From an uncultured Selenomonadales bacterium (GTDB lineage: Bacteria; Bacillota; Negativicutes; Selenomonadales; Selenomonadaceae): a DNA stretch of 48,283 nucleotides. Numbering within the stretch: the first letter of the stretch is position 1; each line of letters begins with the position of its first letter. The notes beneath the pieces are model-generated. The model had not been told where the DNA came from. It made no database searches and saw nothing but the letters and a program-made list of their open reading frames with translations. The stretch is from NCBI GenBank assembly GCA_946408355.1, contig CAMJRX010000017.1:1-48283 (forward strand), in the 5' to 3' direction. Made by a program: the position numbers and the translations under genes. Shown piece by piece: positions 35,264-43,967 of this stretch.

Positions 35264-35275
35264 GTGTGCTATAAT
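35247..35275 (+). promoter_or_regulatory. Promoter of the first TagF-like gene
   Basis: TTGCGG (35247-35252) and a perfect TATAAT (35270-35275) with a 17-nt spacer. The -35 lies inside the terminator's right arm. The start codon is 49 nt downstream. Confidence 0.65.
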
Positions 35276-35404
35276 TTACTAAACTCGTTTTTATTTTTAC
35301 AGAAAATTTTTGAGGTGATGTTTATGGGAAAGATTGATTTACAGCTTATCAAGGAGCGCGCCGCAGATTTTTTTGTGACAGGCAACGAATACATGCGCGA
35401 CAGT

Positions 35405-35530
35405 TTGAATTTAAAATTCATTCCTTGTGGACGCGCAGATAAAATTGCTTATGGTGGTGGTCTAATCCTTGATTTAAAATTTATCCCCTACGACTCTGAA
35501 GGTGTTCATAGGGGGGGGTAGTTCTTGCCG
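35405..35530 (+). repeat. Internal 63-bp duplication next to the poly(G) tract
   Basis: The segment beginning LNLKFIP (codons from 35405) is followed 63 nt later by a diverged second copy beginning LDLKFIP (from 35468), which ends in the G tract. The paralogue at 41521 has only one copy (LNLEFIP). Confidence 0.55.
35511..35518 (+). repeat. Poly(G)8 tract inside a coding region
   Basis: Eight consecutive G, far longer than expected in this A+T-rich context, at the exact point where the reading frame of the TagF-like gene breaks. Nine G restores the frame. Homopolymer slippage would switch the gene on and off. Confidence 0.85.
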
Positions 35531-37448
35531 ACGCTAATCAAGATTTGCCCCAAAGTTATTCGATTGCCAAAAATGTTTTCGAGCACGTCGAAAGCGGCAC
35601 GATTAAATTTGTCCTTATTGGTCTGTCTCCGTATATCTTGCCGCAAAATGATACGGAACCTTTAGTTGCTTGGGACGTTAAAACAAATGCGTCCGTCCTT
35701 GAAGATTATTTCAAACTTTGTCTTGACAACGGGGCGAAACCTGTCGTTGTCGTCCTTCCCGTTCATTCATCCCTCAAAAAAAATTACAATGCAGATGTTT
35801 TGAAGACTTTTCGCGACACAATCAATCAAGTCGTGAGAAAGTTTCAATCGTCTGCATTTATTGACTTACTCGATATTGGTCTCTCCAATGTGCGCTTTCA
35901 AGACAAGACGCATTTGAACTCGGAGGGCACAGCGATAGTTACCGTTTTGCTCAGCGTGCGGCTTTATCTCAAGGGGATTCTTTATCCTAAAGACCTTTGC
36001 GCTGCAGACGACGAATTTTTCAATGTGTTCGCGAAATATTTTCCGCGAGATGCCAATTTCCCGAACGACGACAAACCATTGATTCATCTCGTCTTCTGTA
36101 TATTAGCATGCGAGGATTTCAATCGCCTTTCCAAAACTATGCCAAAAGAAAATTGTATGGATTTAATGGCGCGTGTTTTCTCCGAGTTAACTTACAGTTA
36201 TCTCGCGAATTTGGCGGACGTATTTCCAAAAGACGATTTCAACGAACTTATGAATCGTATTTTCAAGATGACTGTAGAAAATATTTGTCGCAAAGATAAA
36301 ATTAAAGTCGGTTTTTATTTTGATTTTTCTGCCCATTGGTGTGGCGATGACCTGTATAATTTTTTTGCTCAAGATAAACGTTTCGACCCCGTAATCTTCA
36401 TGCCCGTAGATGGTTGGTATAATAACGAATCTGATCGCAAAGATTTCCAAAAAGATGCAGAGAAATTCAAAGCACGTGGTTTAAATGTATGTGATATGAA
36501 GAGAGCTTCTTTTGATACTCCTGTACAGGGTATTCTATTTCGCTTTAGACCGTATCCAGAATTCATACCGCCTGCTTTCAAACTTGCAAATATTAGAGTA
36601 AAAGAAACTTTGGTACTTTACGTTTCTTACTCGTTTGATATAGTTGGTGGTCTATCCAGTTCGTATATCGACCTTCCGCTATTTATAATTTTATGGAAGA
36701 TGTTCTTTAATTCTGTTCCCCAGATGGAAAGCGGAAAAAAAGTAAGTAAAATCGCTATGCCACGCGGAATATACAGCGGATATCCTAAATTAGACGTTTT
36801 CTTTAAGTCCGATTCAAAATTTCATTTCGATTGGAAAATGGCACGTCCCGACGCAAAGAAAATCATTTATGCGCCGCATTGGTCGATAAATAATTTTGGA
36901 ATTCGAACTTCCACTTTCCATTGGAATTATCAATTCATGTACGAATTTGCTAAAGCGCATCCCGAAATTTCTTGGGTAATCAAACCACATCCTTTGTTAT
37001 TTCACTCGACAAGATGGACAGGACTTTTCCCTTCCGATGAAGCCTTGAATGAGTATTTTCAAAAATGGGACGACTTGCCCAACGCTCGATTTTATTCGGG
37101 AGCCTATTATCAGGATATTTTTGCCACAAGTGACGGCATGATTCAAGACTGTGGTTCTTTTATCGCCGAATATCAGTATGTGGATAAGCCAATGATTTAT
37201 TTAATGCGTCCGGGAAGAAAATTTAACGAATTCTGTCAAAAAATATTAGAAACAACTTACCTTGTCGTCGGGAAAAATTTTGACGAAATTACCGCGATGA
37301 TACAGAGAGTTTTTATCGAGGGCGATGATTACAAAGCCGCCGAGCGCAAGGCAGTTTTTGATGAACATCTCAACTACCAAAAACATAACGGTATGTTAGC
37401 AAGCGAATTCATTTACAAAAATATTATCGAAGAATTGGGGTTATCTAA

Positions 37449-39278
37449 ATGCAAGCAATAATTCTCGCAGCGGGCATGGGCAAACGACTTAAAGAATTGA
37501 CGCAGGACAATACCAAATGCATGGTTAAAGTCAACGGCGTCACCTTGATTGATAGAATGCTTCATCAGCTTGAACAACAGCACCTGTCCCGTATCGTTAT
37601 CGTCGTAGGTTATAAAGGGCAAAAATTAATCGACTACATTTCCACGCTTGATATTCAAACGCCTATCGTTTACGTCAGCAATCCGATTTACGACAAGACA
37701 AATAATATTTACTCGCTCTTTCTGGCACGGGAATATCTTTGCAAGGAAGATACGCTTTTGCTGGAGTCCGATTTAATTTTTGAAGACAGCGTATTGGAAG
37801 AATTAGTTAATGACCCTCGCGAAACTCTTGCACTTGTCGACAAGTACGAAAGTTGGATGGACGGCACATGCTTAAAAATTACAAACGACGATCGAATCGA
37901 AAAGTTCATCTCCGGCAAAAATTTTAATTTTAAGGATACGAACGACCTTTACAAGACCGTAAATATTTACAAATTCAGCAAGCATTTTTCCGAAAATCTT
38001 TACGCGCCTTTTCTCAACGCCTACTCAACAGCTTTAGGCAATAACGAATATTACGAACAAGTTCTGCGCGTCATAATGATTCTTGACGAACCGGAGATTC
38101 GCGTTAAGCGTTTGGATACACTTCGCGACACGGTAAAAACTTTGCGTTGGTATGAAATTGACGATATTCAAGATTTAGATATTGCCGAGTCGATGTTCGC
38201 TCTCGACGACTATGACAAGCTCGCGAAAATTCAGTTGCGTTATGGCGGCTATTGGCGTTATCCTAAATTGCTTGACTTTTGTTATCTGATTAATCCTTAC
38301 TTCCCGCCGCAAAAGTTGATTGATGAAATTACTGCCAACGCGAAAAATCTTTTGACGCAATATCCTTCAGGCATGCGGGTAAACTCTTTACTTGCGGCAA
38401 AAAATTTTGTTGTCCATGAAGAAAATATCTTGGTTGGCAATGGCGCGGCTGAGTTGATTAAGTCGCTAATGGAAAAATTATCTGGGAAAGTCGGTTTTGT
38501 CCGTCCGACATTCGAGGAATATCCCAATCGCTATGATAAAGCTGATTCTATTTACTTCACGCCGCAAAATGAAAATTTCTCTTACAACGTTGACGACCTG
38601 ACAAATTTCTTCGGAGATAAAGAGATAACTTCGCTCGTCGTTGTCAATCCTGATAATCCGTCGGGCAATTTCATTCCCAAATTCGAATTAATCCGGCTGA
38701 TTGATTGGGCAACGCAAAAAAATATTCAGCTGATTATCGATGAAAGTTTTGCCGACTTCGCGGACGAGAACGAAACTTTAATTGAGCAAAAAATTTTAGA
38801 CACGAATAAAAATCTCTGCGTTATCAAGAGCTTGTCGAAATCTCACGGCATTGGCGGATTGCGGCTGGGCGTTATGGCGTCGGGTAATCAAGAACTTATC
38901 GCCGCGCTGAAAAAAGACGCCGTCATCTGGAATATAAATTCTTTCGCGGAATTTTATATGCAAATTTTTGAGAAATACAAACGTACTTATATTGATTCAC
39001 TCCAAAAACTTCGCGAGGAACGCAAAAGATTTTCCCATGAGCTTGAAAAAATTTCCGGTGTTCGCGTCGTTCCGAGTTCAGCGAATTTTATTATGATCGA
39101 ACTTGACGATAAAGTTCCTGCAAAAGAACTCTGTAAAAATCTCTTAATCGGTTACAACATTTTGCTCAAAGATTTGTCGCCAAAAGTTAGCGGGAAAAAT
39201 TACCTGCGCTTGGCGGTGCGCTTGACTGAAGACAATGATAAATTAATCGAATCTCTTAAAAAGGAGTTGTCGACATGA
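37449..39278 (+). CDS. Nucleotidyltransferase fused to CobD/HisC-type PLP enzyme
   Basis: A 609-residue bifunctional protein. Residues 1-240 are a sugar/alcohol-phosphate nucleotidyltransferase (LAAGMGKRLKELTQDNTKCM, with LLLESDLIFED as the metal site), of the LicC/choline-phosphate cytidylyltransferase kind. Residues 265-609 are a fold-type I PLP enzyme: NPDNPSG at 400-406 and the PLP lysine K464 in SLSKSHGIGGLRLG. Its nearest types are HisC aminotransferase and CobD threonine-phosphate decarboxylase; CobD-like serine-phosphate decarboxylases are known in capsule loci. A plausible activity is to make an amino-alcohol phosphate and activate it with CTP. It overlaps the preceding gene by 13 nt and the next by 4 nt. 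Confidence 0.88.
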   Translation: MQAIILAAGMGKRLKELTQDNTKCMVKVNGVTLIDRMLHQLEQQHLSRIVIVVGYKGQKLIDYISTLDIQTPIVYVSNPIYDKTNNIYSLFLAREYLCKEDTLLLESDLIFEDSVLEELVNDPRETLALVDKYESWMDGTCLKITNDDRIEKFISGKNFNFKDTNDLYKTVNIYKFSKHFSENLYAPFLNAYSTALGNNEYYEQVLRVIMILDEPEIRVKRLDTLRDTVKTLRWYEIDDIQDLDIAESMFALDDYDKLAKIQLRYGGYWRYPKLLDFCYLINPYFPPQKLIDEITANAKNLLTQYPSGMRVNSLLAAKNFVVHEENILVGNGAAELIKSLMEKLSGKVGFVRPTFEEYPNRYDKADSIYFTPQNENFSYNVDDLTNFFGDKEITSLVVVNPDNPSGNFIPKFELIRLIDWATQKNIQLIIDESFADFADENETLIEQKILDTNKNLCVIKSLSKSHGIGGLRLGVMASGNQELIAALKKDAVIWNINSFAEFYMQIFEKYKRTYIDSLQKLREERKRFSHELEKISGVRVVPSSANFIMIELDDKVPAKELCKNLLIGYNILLKDLSPKVSGKNYLRLAVRLTEDNDKLIESLKKELST

Positions 39279-40363
39279 AAATTTGCATTGTCGGCGGCGG
39301 CAATCTCGGAACAGCTATGGCGGCTGAATTCGCCTCGAAAAATCACGCGGTTAATATTTTGACATCAAAACCCGAAGCTTGGCAAAAGAATATTGAGGCT
39401 GACGAAATCGTTCGGGGGGGGGGATTATTAAAATTAAAAGCTAAGTTAAATTTGGTGACGGCAGACGCGGCTGAGGCTTTTGATTCAACCGATTACATTT
39501 TTGTAACCTTGCCGTCTAATGTTCAAAAAGATTTTGCAAAAAGAGTAGCTCCCCTTGTAAGCGATAAAATGAAATTCGTTATGATACCTGGCTTTGGCGG
39601 CGTAGAATTTTTAATGCAACCAGTTTTAAAAAGCGGCGCAGAATTATTTGGTTTTCAGCGCGTGCCATTCATAGCTCGCTTAAAAGAATATGGAAAAAGC
39701 GTTTGGTTTGAAAAAAAAGCTCGCTTGCACCTCGCAAAATTTTCCGGCGGAGATATTATTTCAACCTGTCGCGAAATGGAAAAGCTTTTTTCTATCCCCT
39801 GTGAAGCGTTGAATAATTATCTGTGTATTACGTTGACGCCTTCCAACCCTGTACTGCATACCTCGCGACTTTATTCGATGTTGAAAGACGCCGATTCAGC
39901 GATTGAGCAGAATAAATTTTTCTATGCGGACTGGAATGACGCGGCTTCAGAAGTTTTATTTAAGCTCGACGACGAAGTTCAAGCAATTTGCCATGCGTTG
40001 AAGGAAGTAGATTTGCATTCGGTGCTTTCTTTGAAAGTTTACTACGAGAGCAAAACTATTTCCGCGTTGACTAAAAAAATCCGTAGTATCCCGTCGTTGA
40101 GCAAAATTTCTTCGCCATTTAAACATATTGCTCAAGGTTTGTTGCCGGACTATGAAAATCGATACTTCAAGTGCGATTTTGAATTCGGATTAGATATTTT
40201 TCTGCAATTCGCCGAGATATTGAAATTAAACGTGCCGACAATGCAAAACGTTATGAACTGGTATCGGCAACGAACAAAGAATTTTACTCGTGCAGTAAAT
40301 CTTGCAGAATATGGAATAAAATCCGAGCGAAATATTTATAAATTTTACAGCACGACGAATTAA
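39275..40363 (+). CDS. Opine/octopine dehydrogenase family protein, with in-frame poly(G)10
   Basis: A 362-residue NAD(P)-dependent dehydrogenase. The Rossmann motif GGGNLGTAMA is at residues 7-16, and the C-terminal part (NNYLCITLTPSNPVLHTSRL; NRYFKCDFEFGLDIFLQFAE) matches the opine dehydrogenase catalytic domain. Such enzymes reductively join an amino acid to a keto acid. Ten G at 39414-39423 encode R47-G50, so the frame is open at this length but any change of 1 or 2 G would close it. The start overlaps the previous stop by 4 nt and has AAAAGGAG upstream. Confidence 0.87.
   Translation: MKICIVGGGNLGTAMAAEFASKNHAVNILTSKPEAWQKNIEADEIVRGGGLLKLKAKLNLVTADAAEAFDSTDYIFVTLPSNVQKDFAKRVAPLVSDKMKFVMIPGFGGVEFLMQPVLKSGAELFGFQRVPFIARLKEYGKSVWFEKKARLHLAKFSGGDIISTCREMEKLFSIPCEALNNYLCITLTPSNPVLHTSRLYSMLKDADSAIEQNKFFYADWNDAASEVLFKLDDEVQAICHALKEVDLHSVLSLKVYYESKTISALTKKIRSIPSLSKISSPFKHIAQGLLPDYENRYFKCDFEFGLDIFLQFAEILKLNVPTMQNVMNWYRQRTKNFTRAVNLAEYGIKSERNIYKFYSTTN
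39414..39423 (+). repeat. Poly(G)10 tract in the opine dehydrogenase gene
   Basis: Ten G in a row, in frame, near the 5' end of the coding region. It is the longest G run in the window and lies 3.9 kb from the poly(G)8 tract in the same locus. This is a typical contingency-locus structure. Confidence 0.85.
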
Positions 40364-41472: not shown

Positions 41473-41520
41473 TTACCGAACTCGTGTTATATTTTCTAAA
41501 AAAATTTTTAGGTGATGTTT

Positions 41521-43551
41521 ATGGAAAAAAAAGACTTACAGAGTATCACAGAAGGTAGCGTAGATTTCTTTGCAACGGGCGATGAATACGTTCGCAACAA
41601 TTTGAATTTGGAATTTATTCCTTATGGACATACCGATAAAAATGCGTCTAGAGGATTAATTCTTGCCGACGCCAATCAAAATTTGTCGCAAAGCTATTCG
41701 ATTGCTAAACAGATTTTCGAGCACGCTACTGTTAAATTTGTACTTATCGGGTTGTCGCCTTATGTCGTTTCGGAAAATAATTCGGAACTTTTGGTTGCTT
41801 GGGACGTCCAAAAAAATGTTTCCGTTCTTGAAGATTATATCCAACTATGCCTCAATAACGGAGCAAAACCTGTTGTTGTCGTCCTCCCCGTCCATGCGTC
41901 TATCAGAAAAGATTATGATTCAAATGTCGTGCTATCCTTCCGCAATACAATTAATAAAGTCGTAGAAAAATATGCTGTATTTATTGATTTACTTGACGTT
42001 AAGATTAACAATAAGCTTTTTAATGGTAATTGGCTTTTGAGTGCGGAAGGTTCAGCGTTAATAAGTGCTTTTCTCGGCGCGAAACTTTATTTTGAAAATC
42101 TTTTCTCCGCAGAAACAGTTTGCAGTATGGACAACGAGTATTTTAATTTGCTTAAGAAATATTTTCCAAGATTTTATAAAAAACTTATACACGACACTTT
42201 CTGCCGCATGGTGTTTGATGACTTCAACCGGTTAGCAAAAACTTTGACTAAAGAAACTCGCCTTGACTTAATGGCAAATGTTTTATCTGGTATGACTTAT
42301 AATCATCTTGTAAATCTGTCAAATATACTGATAAAGGACGATTACAATAATTTGGCGGCGCGTATTTTTAAATTGTCGTTAGAAAAAATTCGCCACAAGG
42401 ATAAAATTACAGTGGCTTTCTATTTTGACAGTACCTCTAAATGGTGCGGTGATGAATTGTACAATCTTTTCGCCAAAGATAAACGTTTTGAGCCTACAAT
42501 TTTTATTTATCCAACTGGCGATAACCTTACGCGCAAAGAATTTCAACAAGATATAGAAAAATTTAAGGCACGCGGGCTAAATGTTTTTGTTGTGAAAAAT
42601 CCTACTGTAGATATTCCCGTTCAAGATATTCTTATTCAAACTTCACCATACGATGATAATGTACCGAGAGATTTTCGCCTTATCAATTTAAAATTCACGA
42701 CTTTATTAGTATATATTCCTTATGCACATACAATATCGTCCAGAGACGGTTTTATTCGTTACAATCCTTTTTTACGTGTTTTATGGAAAGCGTGTTTTCC
42801 GTCAACAATCTCACTCGAATATTATCAAAGAACATGTAGTGTAGGTATGCCACGCGGAATTTTCAGCGGCTATCCGAGAATGGATATTTTCTTCAATAAA
42901 AATGCTGATTTTAAATTCGATTGGAAGATAACGCGTCCCGATTCAAAGAAAATTATTTGGGCACCACATCACACTGTAAGCGATTCCGACACCAGCCTTA
43001 AATATTCAACTTTCCGGTGGAATTATCAGTTTATGTACGAATTCGCTAAGGCTCATCCAGAAATTTCATGGGTCGTCAAGCCACATCCTTGGTTATTTAG
43101 AAATACAGTTCATGCGCATATATTTCCCTCCCTTGAGGCTTGCGAAGAATACTTTCAAAAATGGAATGACTTGCCCAACGCTCAGGTTTATATGGGAGCC
43201 TATTATCAGGATATTTTCGCCACAAGCGACGGCATGATCCACGACAGCGGCTCTTTTATCGCCGAATATCAATACGTGAATAAACCAATGATTTATTTAA
43301 CTCGCGACACGCAAAAATTTAACGCTCTCGGCAATGTAATTTTAAAAGCGTCTTATACTGTCGACGGAAAAAATTTAGACGCCATAGCCGCTATAATGCA
43401 ACGGGTCTTTATCGAGGGTGACGATTATAAAGCCGCCGAGCGCAGGGCAGTTTTCGATAAATATCTCAATTACCCGAAATATCTTGGCATGTCGGCAAGC
43501 GAATTTATTTATAAAAATATTGTTGACGACTTAAAAGAGGTGGCAAAATGA
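41521..43551 (+). CDS. TagF-like glycerophosphotransferase with SGNH-like N-terminal part
   Basis: A 676-residue intact paralogue of the gene at 35324. The N-terminal third resembles an SGNH/GDSL fold, but the DxxH block seen in the paralogue is replaced (FNGNWLLSAEG), so any hydrolase/transferase chemistry there is probably lost. The C-terminal half is of the CDP-glycerol:poly-glycerophosphate transferase type: KIIWAPHHTVSDS, SWVVKPHP (K520-P523) and GMIHDSGSFIAEYQYVNKPM (D575). It would polymerise or add phospho-alcohol units to a surface glycan. The start is ATG 41521 behind AGGTGAT; the stop overlaps tagD by 4 nt. There is no G tract. Confidence 0.85.
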   Translation: MEKKDLQSITEGSVDFFATGDEYVRNNLNLEFIPYGHTDKNASRGLILADANQNLSQSYSIAKQIFEHATVKFVLIGLSPYVVSENNSELLVAWDVQKNVSVLEDYIQLCLNNGAKPVVVVLPVHASIRKDYDSNVVLSFRNTINKVVEKYAVFIDLLDVKINNKLFNGNWLLSAEGSALISAFLGAKLYFENLFSAETVCSMDNEYFNLLKKYFPRFYKKLIHDTFCRMVFDDFNRLAKTLTKETRLDLMANVLSGMTYNHLVNLSNILIKDDYNNLAARIFKLSLEKIRHKDKITVAFYFDSTSKWCGDELYNLFAKDKRFEPTIFIYPTGDNLTRKEFQQDIEKFKARGLNVFVVKNPTVDIPVQDILIQTSPYDDNVPRDFRLINLKFTTLLVYIPYAHTISSRDGFIRYNPFLRVLWKACFPSTISLEYYQRTCSVGMPRGIFSGYPRMDIFFNKNADFKFDWKITRPDSKKIIWAPHHTVSDSDTSLKYSTFRWNYQFMYEFAKAHPEISWVVKPHPWLFRNTVHAHIFPSLEACEEYFQKWNDLPNAQVYMGAYYQDIFATSDGMIHDSGSFIAEYQYVNKPMIYLTRDTQKFNALGNVILKASYTVDGKNLDAIAAIMQRVFIEGDDYKAAERRAVFDKYLNYPKYLGMSASEFIYKNIVDDLKEVAK

Positions 43552-43967
43552 CGATAGGCTATACAACTGGCGTTTACGACCTTTTTCATATCGGACACCT
43601 CAACTTGTTGAAAAATGCCAAAGGACTTTGCGACAAGTTGATTGTCGGCGTGACGGTTGACGAGCTGGTTAAGTACAAACATAAACGCGCAATCATTCCC
43701 TTCGAGGATAGGCTGGAAATTGTTCGTTCAATCAAGTACGTTGACGCGGCAATTCCTCAAGATAATATTGATAAATTCGCGGCGTGGGAAAAGCTTAAGT
43801 TCGATATTCTTTTTGTTGGCGACGATTGGTATCAATCTGAAAGCTGGCAAGAAATGGAAGAAAAATTTAAGCGCGTCGGCGTCAAAATTATTTACTTCCC
43901 TTACACAAAAGGGGTCAGCTCAACCGTCATAAGTCAAGCTTTGAAATTGGTACGGGAGATAAATTAA
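43548..43967 (+). CDS. Glycerol-3-phosphate or amino-alcohol-phosphate cytidylyltransferase (TagD-like)
   Basis: A 139-residue cytidylyltransferase of the TagD/Pcy type, making a CDP-alcohol from CTP and an alcohol phosphate. It shows the nucleotide-binding HIGH (HIGHLNLLKNAKGLC), VGVTVDELV, the RLEIVRSIKYVDAA segment and the C-terminal GVSSTVI motif. Its length equals that of glycerol-3-phosphate cytidylyltransferase; ethanolamine-phosphate enzymes look similar. It overlaps the TagF-like gene by 4 nt, so donor-making and donor-using enzymes are coupled. Confidence 0.92.
   Translation: MTIGYTTGVYDLFHIGHLNLLKNAKGLCDKLIVGVTVDELVKYKHKRAIIPFEDRLEIVRSIKYVDAAIPQDNIDKFAAWEKLKFDILFVGDDWYQSESWQEMEEKFKRVGVKIIYFPYTKGVSSTVISQALKLVREIN

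What the first reader, a model, noticed from the sequence alone, without database searches (positions are those of the whole stretch)
35324..37461. A surface-polymer transferase gene is switched off by a poly(G)8 tract
The TagF-like gene stops after 65 codons exactly behind eight consecutive G. The downstream 640 codons are intact and match the paralogue at 41521 through to the end, and a ninth G would fuse the two frames. This is the structure of a reversible contingency gene, not of random decay, since no other stop or frameshift is seen.
Basis: partly seen in the sequence, partly recalled or inferred. Interest (0 to 1): 0.85.

Follow-up and report, generated by a model that had tools for sequence, protein, structure and literature searches.

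The report
Poly-G on/off switch in surface-polymer gene
A gut-bacterium gene for building a cell-surface polymer is interrupted at a run of eight Gs, and comparison with relatives indicates a reversible on/off switch of a known kind, one of many such G runs in this little-studied bacterial genus.

Summary
Observation confirmed: G8 at 35511-35518 ends a 65-codon frame; a 649-codon frame starts inside the tract and matches the paralogue to its end. Comparison favours a contingency locus over decay. (1) The same codon site carries a G tract in 5 gene copies from 4 of 66 congeneric genomes: one in frame (G9), four out of frame, in both wrong registers; one genome holds an in-frame and an out-of-frame copy. 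The tract needs at least three gains or losses on the tree. (2) Against the closest relative found, also G8 but in another register, the downstream frame shows dN/dS 0.15. (3) The genome has 22 tracts of G8-G12, eight in polysaccharide-type genes, some in promoter spacers; the genus has a tenfold higher median of G10 windows per Mb than other genera of its family. Against: no reads, so switching itself is not shown; the relative's copy also carries an insertion; four of five copies are off. The mechanism is known (Campylobacter, Helicobacter, Neisseria); eight open-access full-text searches listed no report for this bacterial family. New member of a known kind.

The parts
35270..35275 (+). TATAAT, probable -10 of the gene's own promoter; a similar upstream block precedes the paralogue
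   Evidence: sequence; alignment of the two upstream regions
35312..35319 (+). GAGGTGAT, probable ribosome binding site
   Evidence: sequence
35324..35521 (+). upstream frame, 65 codons and TAG
35453..35509 (+). about 19 extra residues compared with the paralogue, resembling a partial duplication of the segment before it (boundaries approximate)
35511..35518 (+). G8 tract at the frame junction
35512..37461 (+). downstream frame, 649 codons, C-terminal CDP-glycerol:glycerophosphotransferase domain (PF04464)
37449..39278 (+). nucleotidyltransferase fused to a PLP enzyme nearest CobD/HisC, same locus
   Evidence: below NCBIfam cut-offs
39275..40363 (+). octopine/nopaline-dehydrogenase-type gene with an in-frame G10 tract
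39414..39423 (+). G10 tract, in frame
41512..43551 (+). intact paralogue without a tract
43548..43967 (+). cytidylyltransferase-like gene (PF01467)

Best explanation
This is a translational contingency (phase-variable) gene. Slipped-strand mispairing in the G tract changes its length. In one register the ribosome reads through an N-terminal region into a glycerophosphotransferase-type domain; in the other two it stops soon after the tract, so no enzyme is made. The assembled genome shows an off state while the paralogue 6 kb downstream stays on, so switching would probably change the composition of a surface polymer rather than abolish it. Shown: anatomy, selection on the downstream frame, recurrence of the site with several lengths and all three registers, genus-wide tract abundance. 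Inferred: slippage in living cells, reversibility, polymer chemistry, and the benefit (escape from phage, protozoa or host recognition).
For:: anatomy; 360 codons against the closest relative found, dS 0.393, dN 0.058, ratio 0.147, Fisher p 1e-21; the two other frames give 1.2 and 2.2; that relative also has G8 but one base less in the block, a different register; 5 copies in 4 of 66 genomes carry the tract at this site (reversed-pattern control 0), with runs of G8, G8, G9, G10 and an interrupted G6AG3; the G9 copy is in frame; 5 of the 18 sites examined have a tract, where 9 of the 13 others encode Gly-Gly and 4 a single Gly; at least 3 changes on the tree; 22 tracts in the own genome; a second gene family (FliB) also has tracts at one site in several genomes, in and out of frame; genus enrichment; promoter-spacer tracts. 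Literature: tracts of 8 or more are reported to mediate switching in C. jejuni (PMC6321876, passages); H. canadensis has (G)9 with a range of 8-10 in reads (PMC2823697, passages).
Against: No read data, so no length mixture was seen. G8 is at the short end of tracts known to switch. 4 of 5 tract copies are off. The closest relative's copy carries an insertion near codon 365 of the downstream part, and its part beyond is only about 69% identical, so that copy may be dead. G058 has an interrupted, off tract. The upstream 62 codons alone give no clear selection (4 synonymous, 9 non-synonymous differences, p 0.48). On the tree the tract label is not significantly clustered (45 of 500 shuffles as low). 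mutS is present (own copy intact; mutL not examined), so no mutator state is indicated.
Confidence: 0.77

Rival explanations
1. The gene is a young pseudogene: the tract slipped once, the gene is not needed because of the paralogue, and it is now decaying.
For: The closest relative's copy is off and also carries an insertion; the interrupted G058 tract is off; 4 of 5 copies are off.
Against: dN/dS 0.147 over 360 codons between two species that both have the tract; no second lesion in the window copy; an in-frame tract copy exists in G039, with an out-of-frame one on the same contig; tract at the same site on separate branches.
Confidence: 0.13
2. The frame break is bridged during expression, by transcriptional slippage or ribosomal frameshifting on the G run, so the full protein is made at a low level all the time.
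For: Three of four off copies are in the same register; the downstream frame is under selection.
Against: The fourth off copy is in the other register and a fifth is in frame, so no fixed shift would serve all; the G058 tract is interrupted; the 13 non-tract sites examined read in frame.
Confidence: 0.05
3. The tract length is a sequencing or assembly error.
For: Homopolymers are error-prone; the own genome is an incomplete (84%) assembly of 85 contigs.
Against: 8 of 12 clearly intragenic, classifiable tracts of the same genome are in frame (my reading); the closest relative found, a separate assembly, also has the tract out of frame.
Confidence: 0.04
4. The copy is a silent donor cassette that recombines with the expressed paralogue.
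For: Similar upstream block and the highest similarity at the 5' and 3' parts; mosaic divergence in the relative.
Against: Nucleotide identity with the paralogue is only 0.44-0.79 in 50-codon blocks, with no block pointing to recent conversion; it has its own promoter, start and ribosome binding site.
Confidence: 0.01

Closest known systems
Poly-G phasome of Campylobacter (PhasomeIt, PMC6321876; passages read)
   Same: G/C tracts mostly of 9-10, mostly (77%) inside ORFs; a cut-off of 7 or more is used, and 8 or more is reported to switch expression in C. jejuni. That many of the genes build surface structures is recalled.
   Different: Different phylum (recalled); tract variability between isolates is documented there, not here.
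Helicobacter canadensis SSR genes (PMC2823697; passages read)
   Same: G tracts at the 5' end of genes and in promoters, including glycosyl transferase and methyltransferase genes; a (G)9 with a range of 8-10 in reads.
   Different: Length range was seen in reads; not available here.
C. jejuni gene 06875, CDP-glycerol glycerophosphotransferase in the capsule locus (PMC8949473; abstract and passages read)
   Same: Frame loss in a glycerophosphotransferase-annotated gene of a capsule locus changes the surface and gives phage resistance.
   Different: There the changes were a deletion in a T8 run and scattered sites; the authors say the latter did not lie in homopolymeric tracts like those of the MeOPN transferases. 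Homology to the window gene beyond the shared annotation was not tested.
Neisseria transcriptional phase variation, fetA and porA (PMC5320596; passages read)
   Same: A homopolymer between -35 and -10 changes spacing and expression, as proposed for the promoter tracts of this genus.
   Different: Not the mechanism of the window tract, which is intragenic.

Membership tests
SSR-mediated translational phase variation | homopolymer at or above the length known to slip (7-8 G) | tested here: met
   G8; thresholds from PMC6321876
SSR-mediated translational phase variation | tract near the 5' end, where a frame change truncates the product | tested here: met
   after codon 62, stop at codon 66
SSR-mediated translational phase variation | coding sequence on both sides otherwise intact and selected | tested here: met
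   downstream; the upstream 62 codons alone are inconclusive
SSR-mediated translational phase variation | different tract lengths and registers among homologues | tested here: met
   5 copies, all three registers
SSR-mediated translational phase variation | length mixture within one population; reversible expression | not testable with these tools
   no reads, no culture
CDP-glycerol glycerophosphotransferase (PF04464, TagF-like) | domain score above the gathering score | tested here: met
   35.8 against 22.1 bits; 8 of 8 members of A2 match
CDP-glycerol glycerophosphotransferase (PF04464, TagF-like) | polymerises glycerol phosphate from CDP-glycerol | not testable with these tools
   no NCBIfam match for the paralogue and no PDB relative by sequence; donor and acceptor unknown
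SGNH/DltD-like N-terminal domain | Pfam DltD or GDSL match | tested here: inconclusive

The most novel reading that the evidence does not exclude
An uncultured genus of gut Selenomonadaceae runs a genus-wide poly-G phasome: translational switches in surface-polymer and surface-modification genes (glycosyltransferases, sugar-nucleotide enzymes, a flagellin lysine methylase, glycerophosphotransferases) and transcriptional switches in promoter spacers of RTX-repeat and other proteins. The glycerophosphotransferase switch was gained or lost at least three times at the same codon site, and the methylase switch also recurs at one site.
Probability: 0.65. Interest if true: 0.62.

Novelty: new member of a known kind. 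Interest (0 to 1): 0.5.

Why it matters
Poly-G contingency loci are well known in host-adapted Campylobacter, Helicobacter and Neisseria. Finding them throughout a genus of gut Selenomonadaceae (diderm Firmicutes, recalled) would extend the strategy to an uncultured part of the microbiome and suggests strong, fluctuating selection on its surface, for example by phages or protozoa. It is directly testable by counting tract lengths in existing metagenome reads. Repeated appearance of a tract at one codon site offers a natural case for how contingency switches arise.

Tried and rejected
Mutator explanation: mutS1 is over the cut-off in 57 of 66 genomes and intact in the own genome; mutL was not examined. 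Tracts conserved everywhere: no; the octopine-dehydrogenase tract is broken or absent in the 4 other copies read (G008, G001, G063, G018; a fifth, G052, was not located by the script), and 13 of 18 transferase sites have none. Recent gene conversion with the paralogue: no supporting block. Non-coding RNA: no Rfam match in the window at gathering scores. Solved relatives: none by sequence. No background rate of polysaccharide-type families among all genes of the genome was computed.

Literature: the absence of a report for this family or class rests on full-text searches of an open-access library, with 41, 43 and 71 listing only part of their hits. One search lists 4 papers holding both 'phase variation' and 'Negativicutes', one on invertons in gut bacteria; I saw these as listings only.

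Mended on checking: a draft said that relatives lack G runs at the FliB site; searches show tracts there in G062, G025 and G007. A draft also called the transferase site 'Gly-Gly' without exception; it is so in 9 of 13 non-tract sites.

Full report
Observation. The G8 tract at 35511-35518 lies at the end of a 65-codon frame that starts at ATG 35324; a second frame begins inside the tract and stays open to 37461. The second frame has the PF04464 glycerophosphotransferase domain and aligns with the intact paralogue at 41512-43551 (57% identity; 347 of 634 columns, 55%). The gene has its own TATAAT and ribosome binding site, in a block similar to that of the paralogue.

Same site in other species. 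A pattern for six G followed by the conserved [VI]L[AS][DN]x[NS]Q codons found 5 distinct places in 4 of 66 genomes of the genus, and none with the pattern reversed. The runs are G8 (window), G8 (G008), G10 and G9 (two copies on one contig of G039) and G6AG3 (G058). Frames read from native DNA: the G9 copy is continuous (ADYFVTGNEY...RRGGVVLADTNQTLQQSY), the other four are broken, three in one wrong register and one in the other. The register script printed only the window and G008 copies; the other registers are read from the frames. Among the 18 distinct family sites that a motif found in the loci I had fetched (a part of the family), 13 have no G run of six or more; 9 of these read Gly-Gly there, 2 Arg-Gly, 1 Glu-Gly and 1 Thr-Gly. 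So the tract replaces codons of a glycine spot. On a tree of the 18 downstream segments the tract needs 3 changes, a single origin appears in 0% of bootstrap trees, and shuffled labels average 4.6 changes, with 45 of 500 shuffles as low, so the label is not significantly clustered; 6 of 15 inner branches are weakly supported.

Selection. Between the window copy and the G008 orthologue, 360 downstream codons give dS 0.393 and dN 0.058, ratio 0.147, Fisher p 1e-21; differences by codon position are 29, 15 and 72. The two wrong frames give ratios 1.2 and 2.2, after dropping codon pairs with stops. Both species carry the tract out of frame in different registers, so the frame was probably translated for much of the time since they parted. 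Caveats: the upstream 62 codons are uninformative (p 0.48); recombination among paralogues could help keep the sequence; and G008's copy leaves homology near codon 365 of the downstream part, close to a contig end. A second contig end carries the same terminal sequence in mirror image before the rest of the gene, which I read as an insertion element.

Genome. The own genome has 22 distinct tracts of eight or more G: 6 G8, 7 G9, 7 G10, 1 G11, 1 G12. By my reading: 8 are inside clearly continuous genes (octopine-type dehydrogenase, flagellin lysine methylase FliB NF038110, two GT2 proteins, FkbM methyltransferase, epimerase, two unassigned); 4 are at clear frame breaks (the window gene, a UDP-glucose-dehydrogenase type, two unassigned); 3 are near a gene end or ambiguous (hexapeptide transferase, GT92, DUF1919); 7 are intergenic or just before a start. 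Eight of the 22 are thus in families common in polysaccharide loci (that association is recalled): this gene, two GT2, GT92, epimerase, UDP-glucose dehydrogenase, FkbM, hexapeptide. No background rate was computed.

A second recurrent site. The own FliB gene has an in-frame G9. At the same place two relatives' FliB copies have G11 (G062) and G9 (G025) with the frame broken at the tract, and a copy at a contig start in G007 has G10 with a stop just upstream in the downstream frame. Of 35 FliB-type sites found by motif, 2 have a tract (own and G007); the G062 and G025 copies, read separately, escape that motif. Most copies have none.

Genus. All 66 of 66 genomes have G9 or longer. Overlapping G10 windows per Mb have a median of 4.67 in 66 genomes of the genus against 0.43 in 123 genomes of other genera of the family; 65 of 66 against 72 of 123 have any (Mann-Whitney p 2.8e-19; one outgroup genome with 2105 windows was kept in the test). 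Abundance is not confined to this genus: three genomes of genus g14 have 15, 26 and 34 windows. Assemblies differ in quality, and windows count long tracts more than once.

Promoter tracts. TTGACA-N(0-12)-G7-N(0-12)-TATA[AC]T was found in 32 of 66 genomes, 64 rows (one place is listed twice), 0 in the reversed control. Spacers range from 13 to 27 with 9 rows at 17 and 23 at 19; in 29 of 64 the tract touches the -10. In 28 of the 30 fetched loci an ORF of at least 70 codons starts within 250 bases (no chance control). Of 20 of these 28 scanned, 5 have RTX-type repeats (one below the gathering score), 2 radical SAM, 1 GT2, 1 AAA, 1 GTPase, 1 DUF5105 and 9 nothing. Before one AAA-type gene (Pfam run on two of four copies; the others share its start) three species have the tract at the same promoter with G9, G8 and G11 (spacers 16, 16, 18); a fourth has its tract at a second TATAAT. 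The excess at 19 is not what a 17-base optimum predicts unless most sampled states are weak; I leave it unexplained.

Comparison with the known. This works like the poly-G contingency genes of Campylobacter and Helicobacter (PMC6321876, PMC2823697, passages read), and frame loss in a glycerophosphotransferase-annotated capsule gene of C. jejuni gives phage resistance, though not through a G tract (PMC8949473, abstract and passages). Membership in SSR phase variation is met for the features tested; population-level length variation could not be tested. Searches listed no report of poly-G phase variation in Selenomonadaceae or Negativicutes; I did not open the 4 papers.

Verdict. A real and probably reversible switch of a known kind, in a lineage where I found none reported. 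The individual gene is ordinary as a mechanism; the genus-wide set and the repeated use of one codon site carry the interest.

Noticed in passing
window 39414-39423: A second tract, in-frame G10, in the octopine-dehydrogenase-type gene; the closest relative has the same length broken by one A (GGGGGAGGGG), still in frame.
   Followed up: yes
L009 1827-1835 (own genome C1); L130, L131, L132: In-frame G9 in a flagellin lysine-N-methylase (FliB) gene beside a second FliB copy; G062, G025 and G007 have G11, G9 and G10 at the same site in FliB copies whose frame is broken there.
   Followed up: partly
L077-L106; own genome L015, L016, L021, L023: Promoter-spacer G tracts upstream of RTX-repeat and other proteins; spacer 19 with the tract touching the -10 is the commonest form, unexplained. 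L015 and L023 were placed by eye with longer spacings and do not match the pattern.
   Followed up: partly
L068 end (G008 C51) and L069 minus-strand start (G008 C60): Mirrored terminal sequences at two contig ends suggest an insertion element inside the relative's copy of the window gene.
   Followed up: partly
window 37449-39278: Nucleotidyltransferase fused to a CobD/HisC-like PLP enzyme in a locus with a cytidylyltransferase-like gene: possibly makes a CDP-activated amino-alcohol phosphate for the polymer.
   Followed up: no
G019 (genome search handle): A nearly complete congener with 370 overlapping G9 windows, the highest count in the genus.
   Followed up: no
G111 contig 9: A family member with 2105 G10 windows; the ones listed are consecutive, so probably one very long G run and an assembly artefact.
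   Followed up: no
own genome C57:731-2413: A third, more distant copy of the transferase that matches in two overlapping pieces.
   Followed up: no
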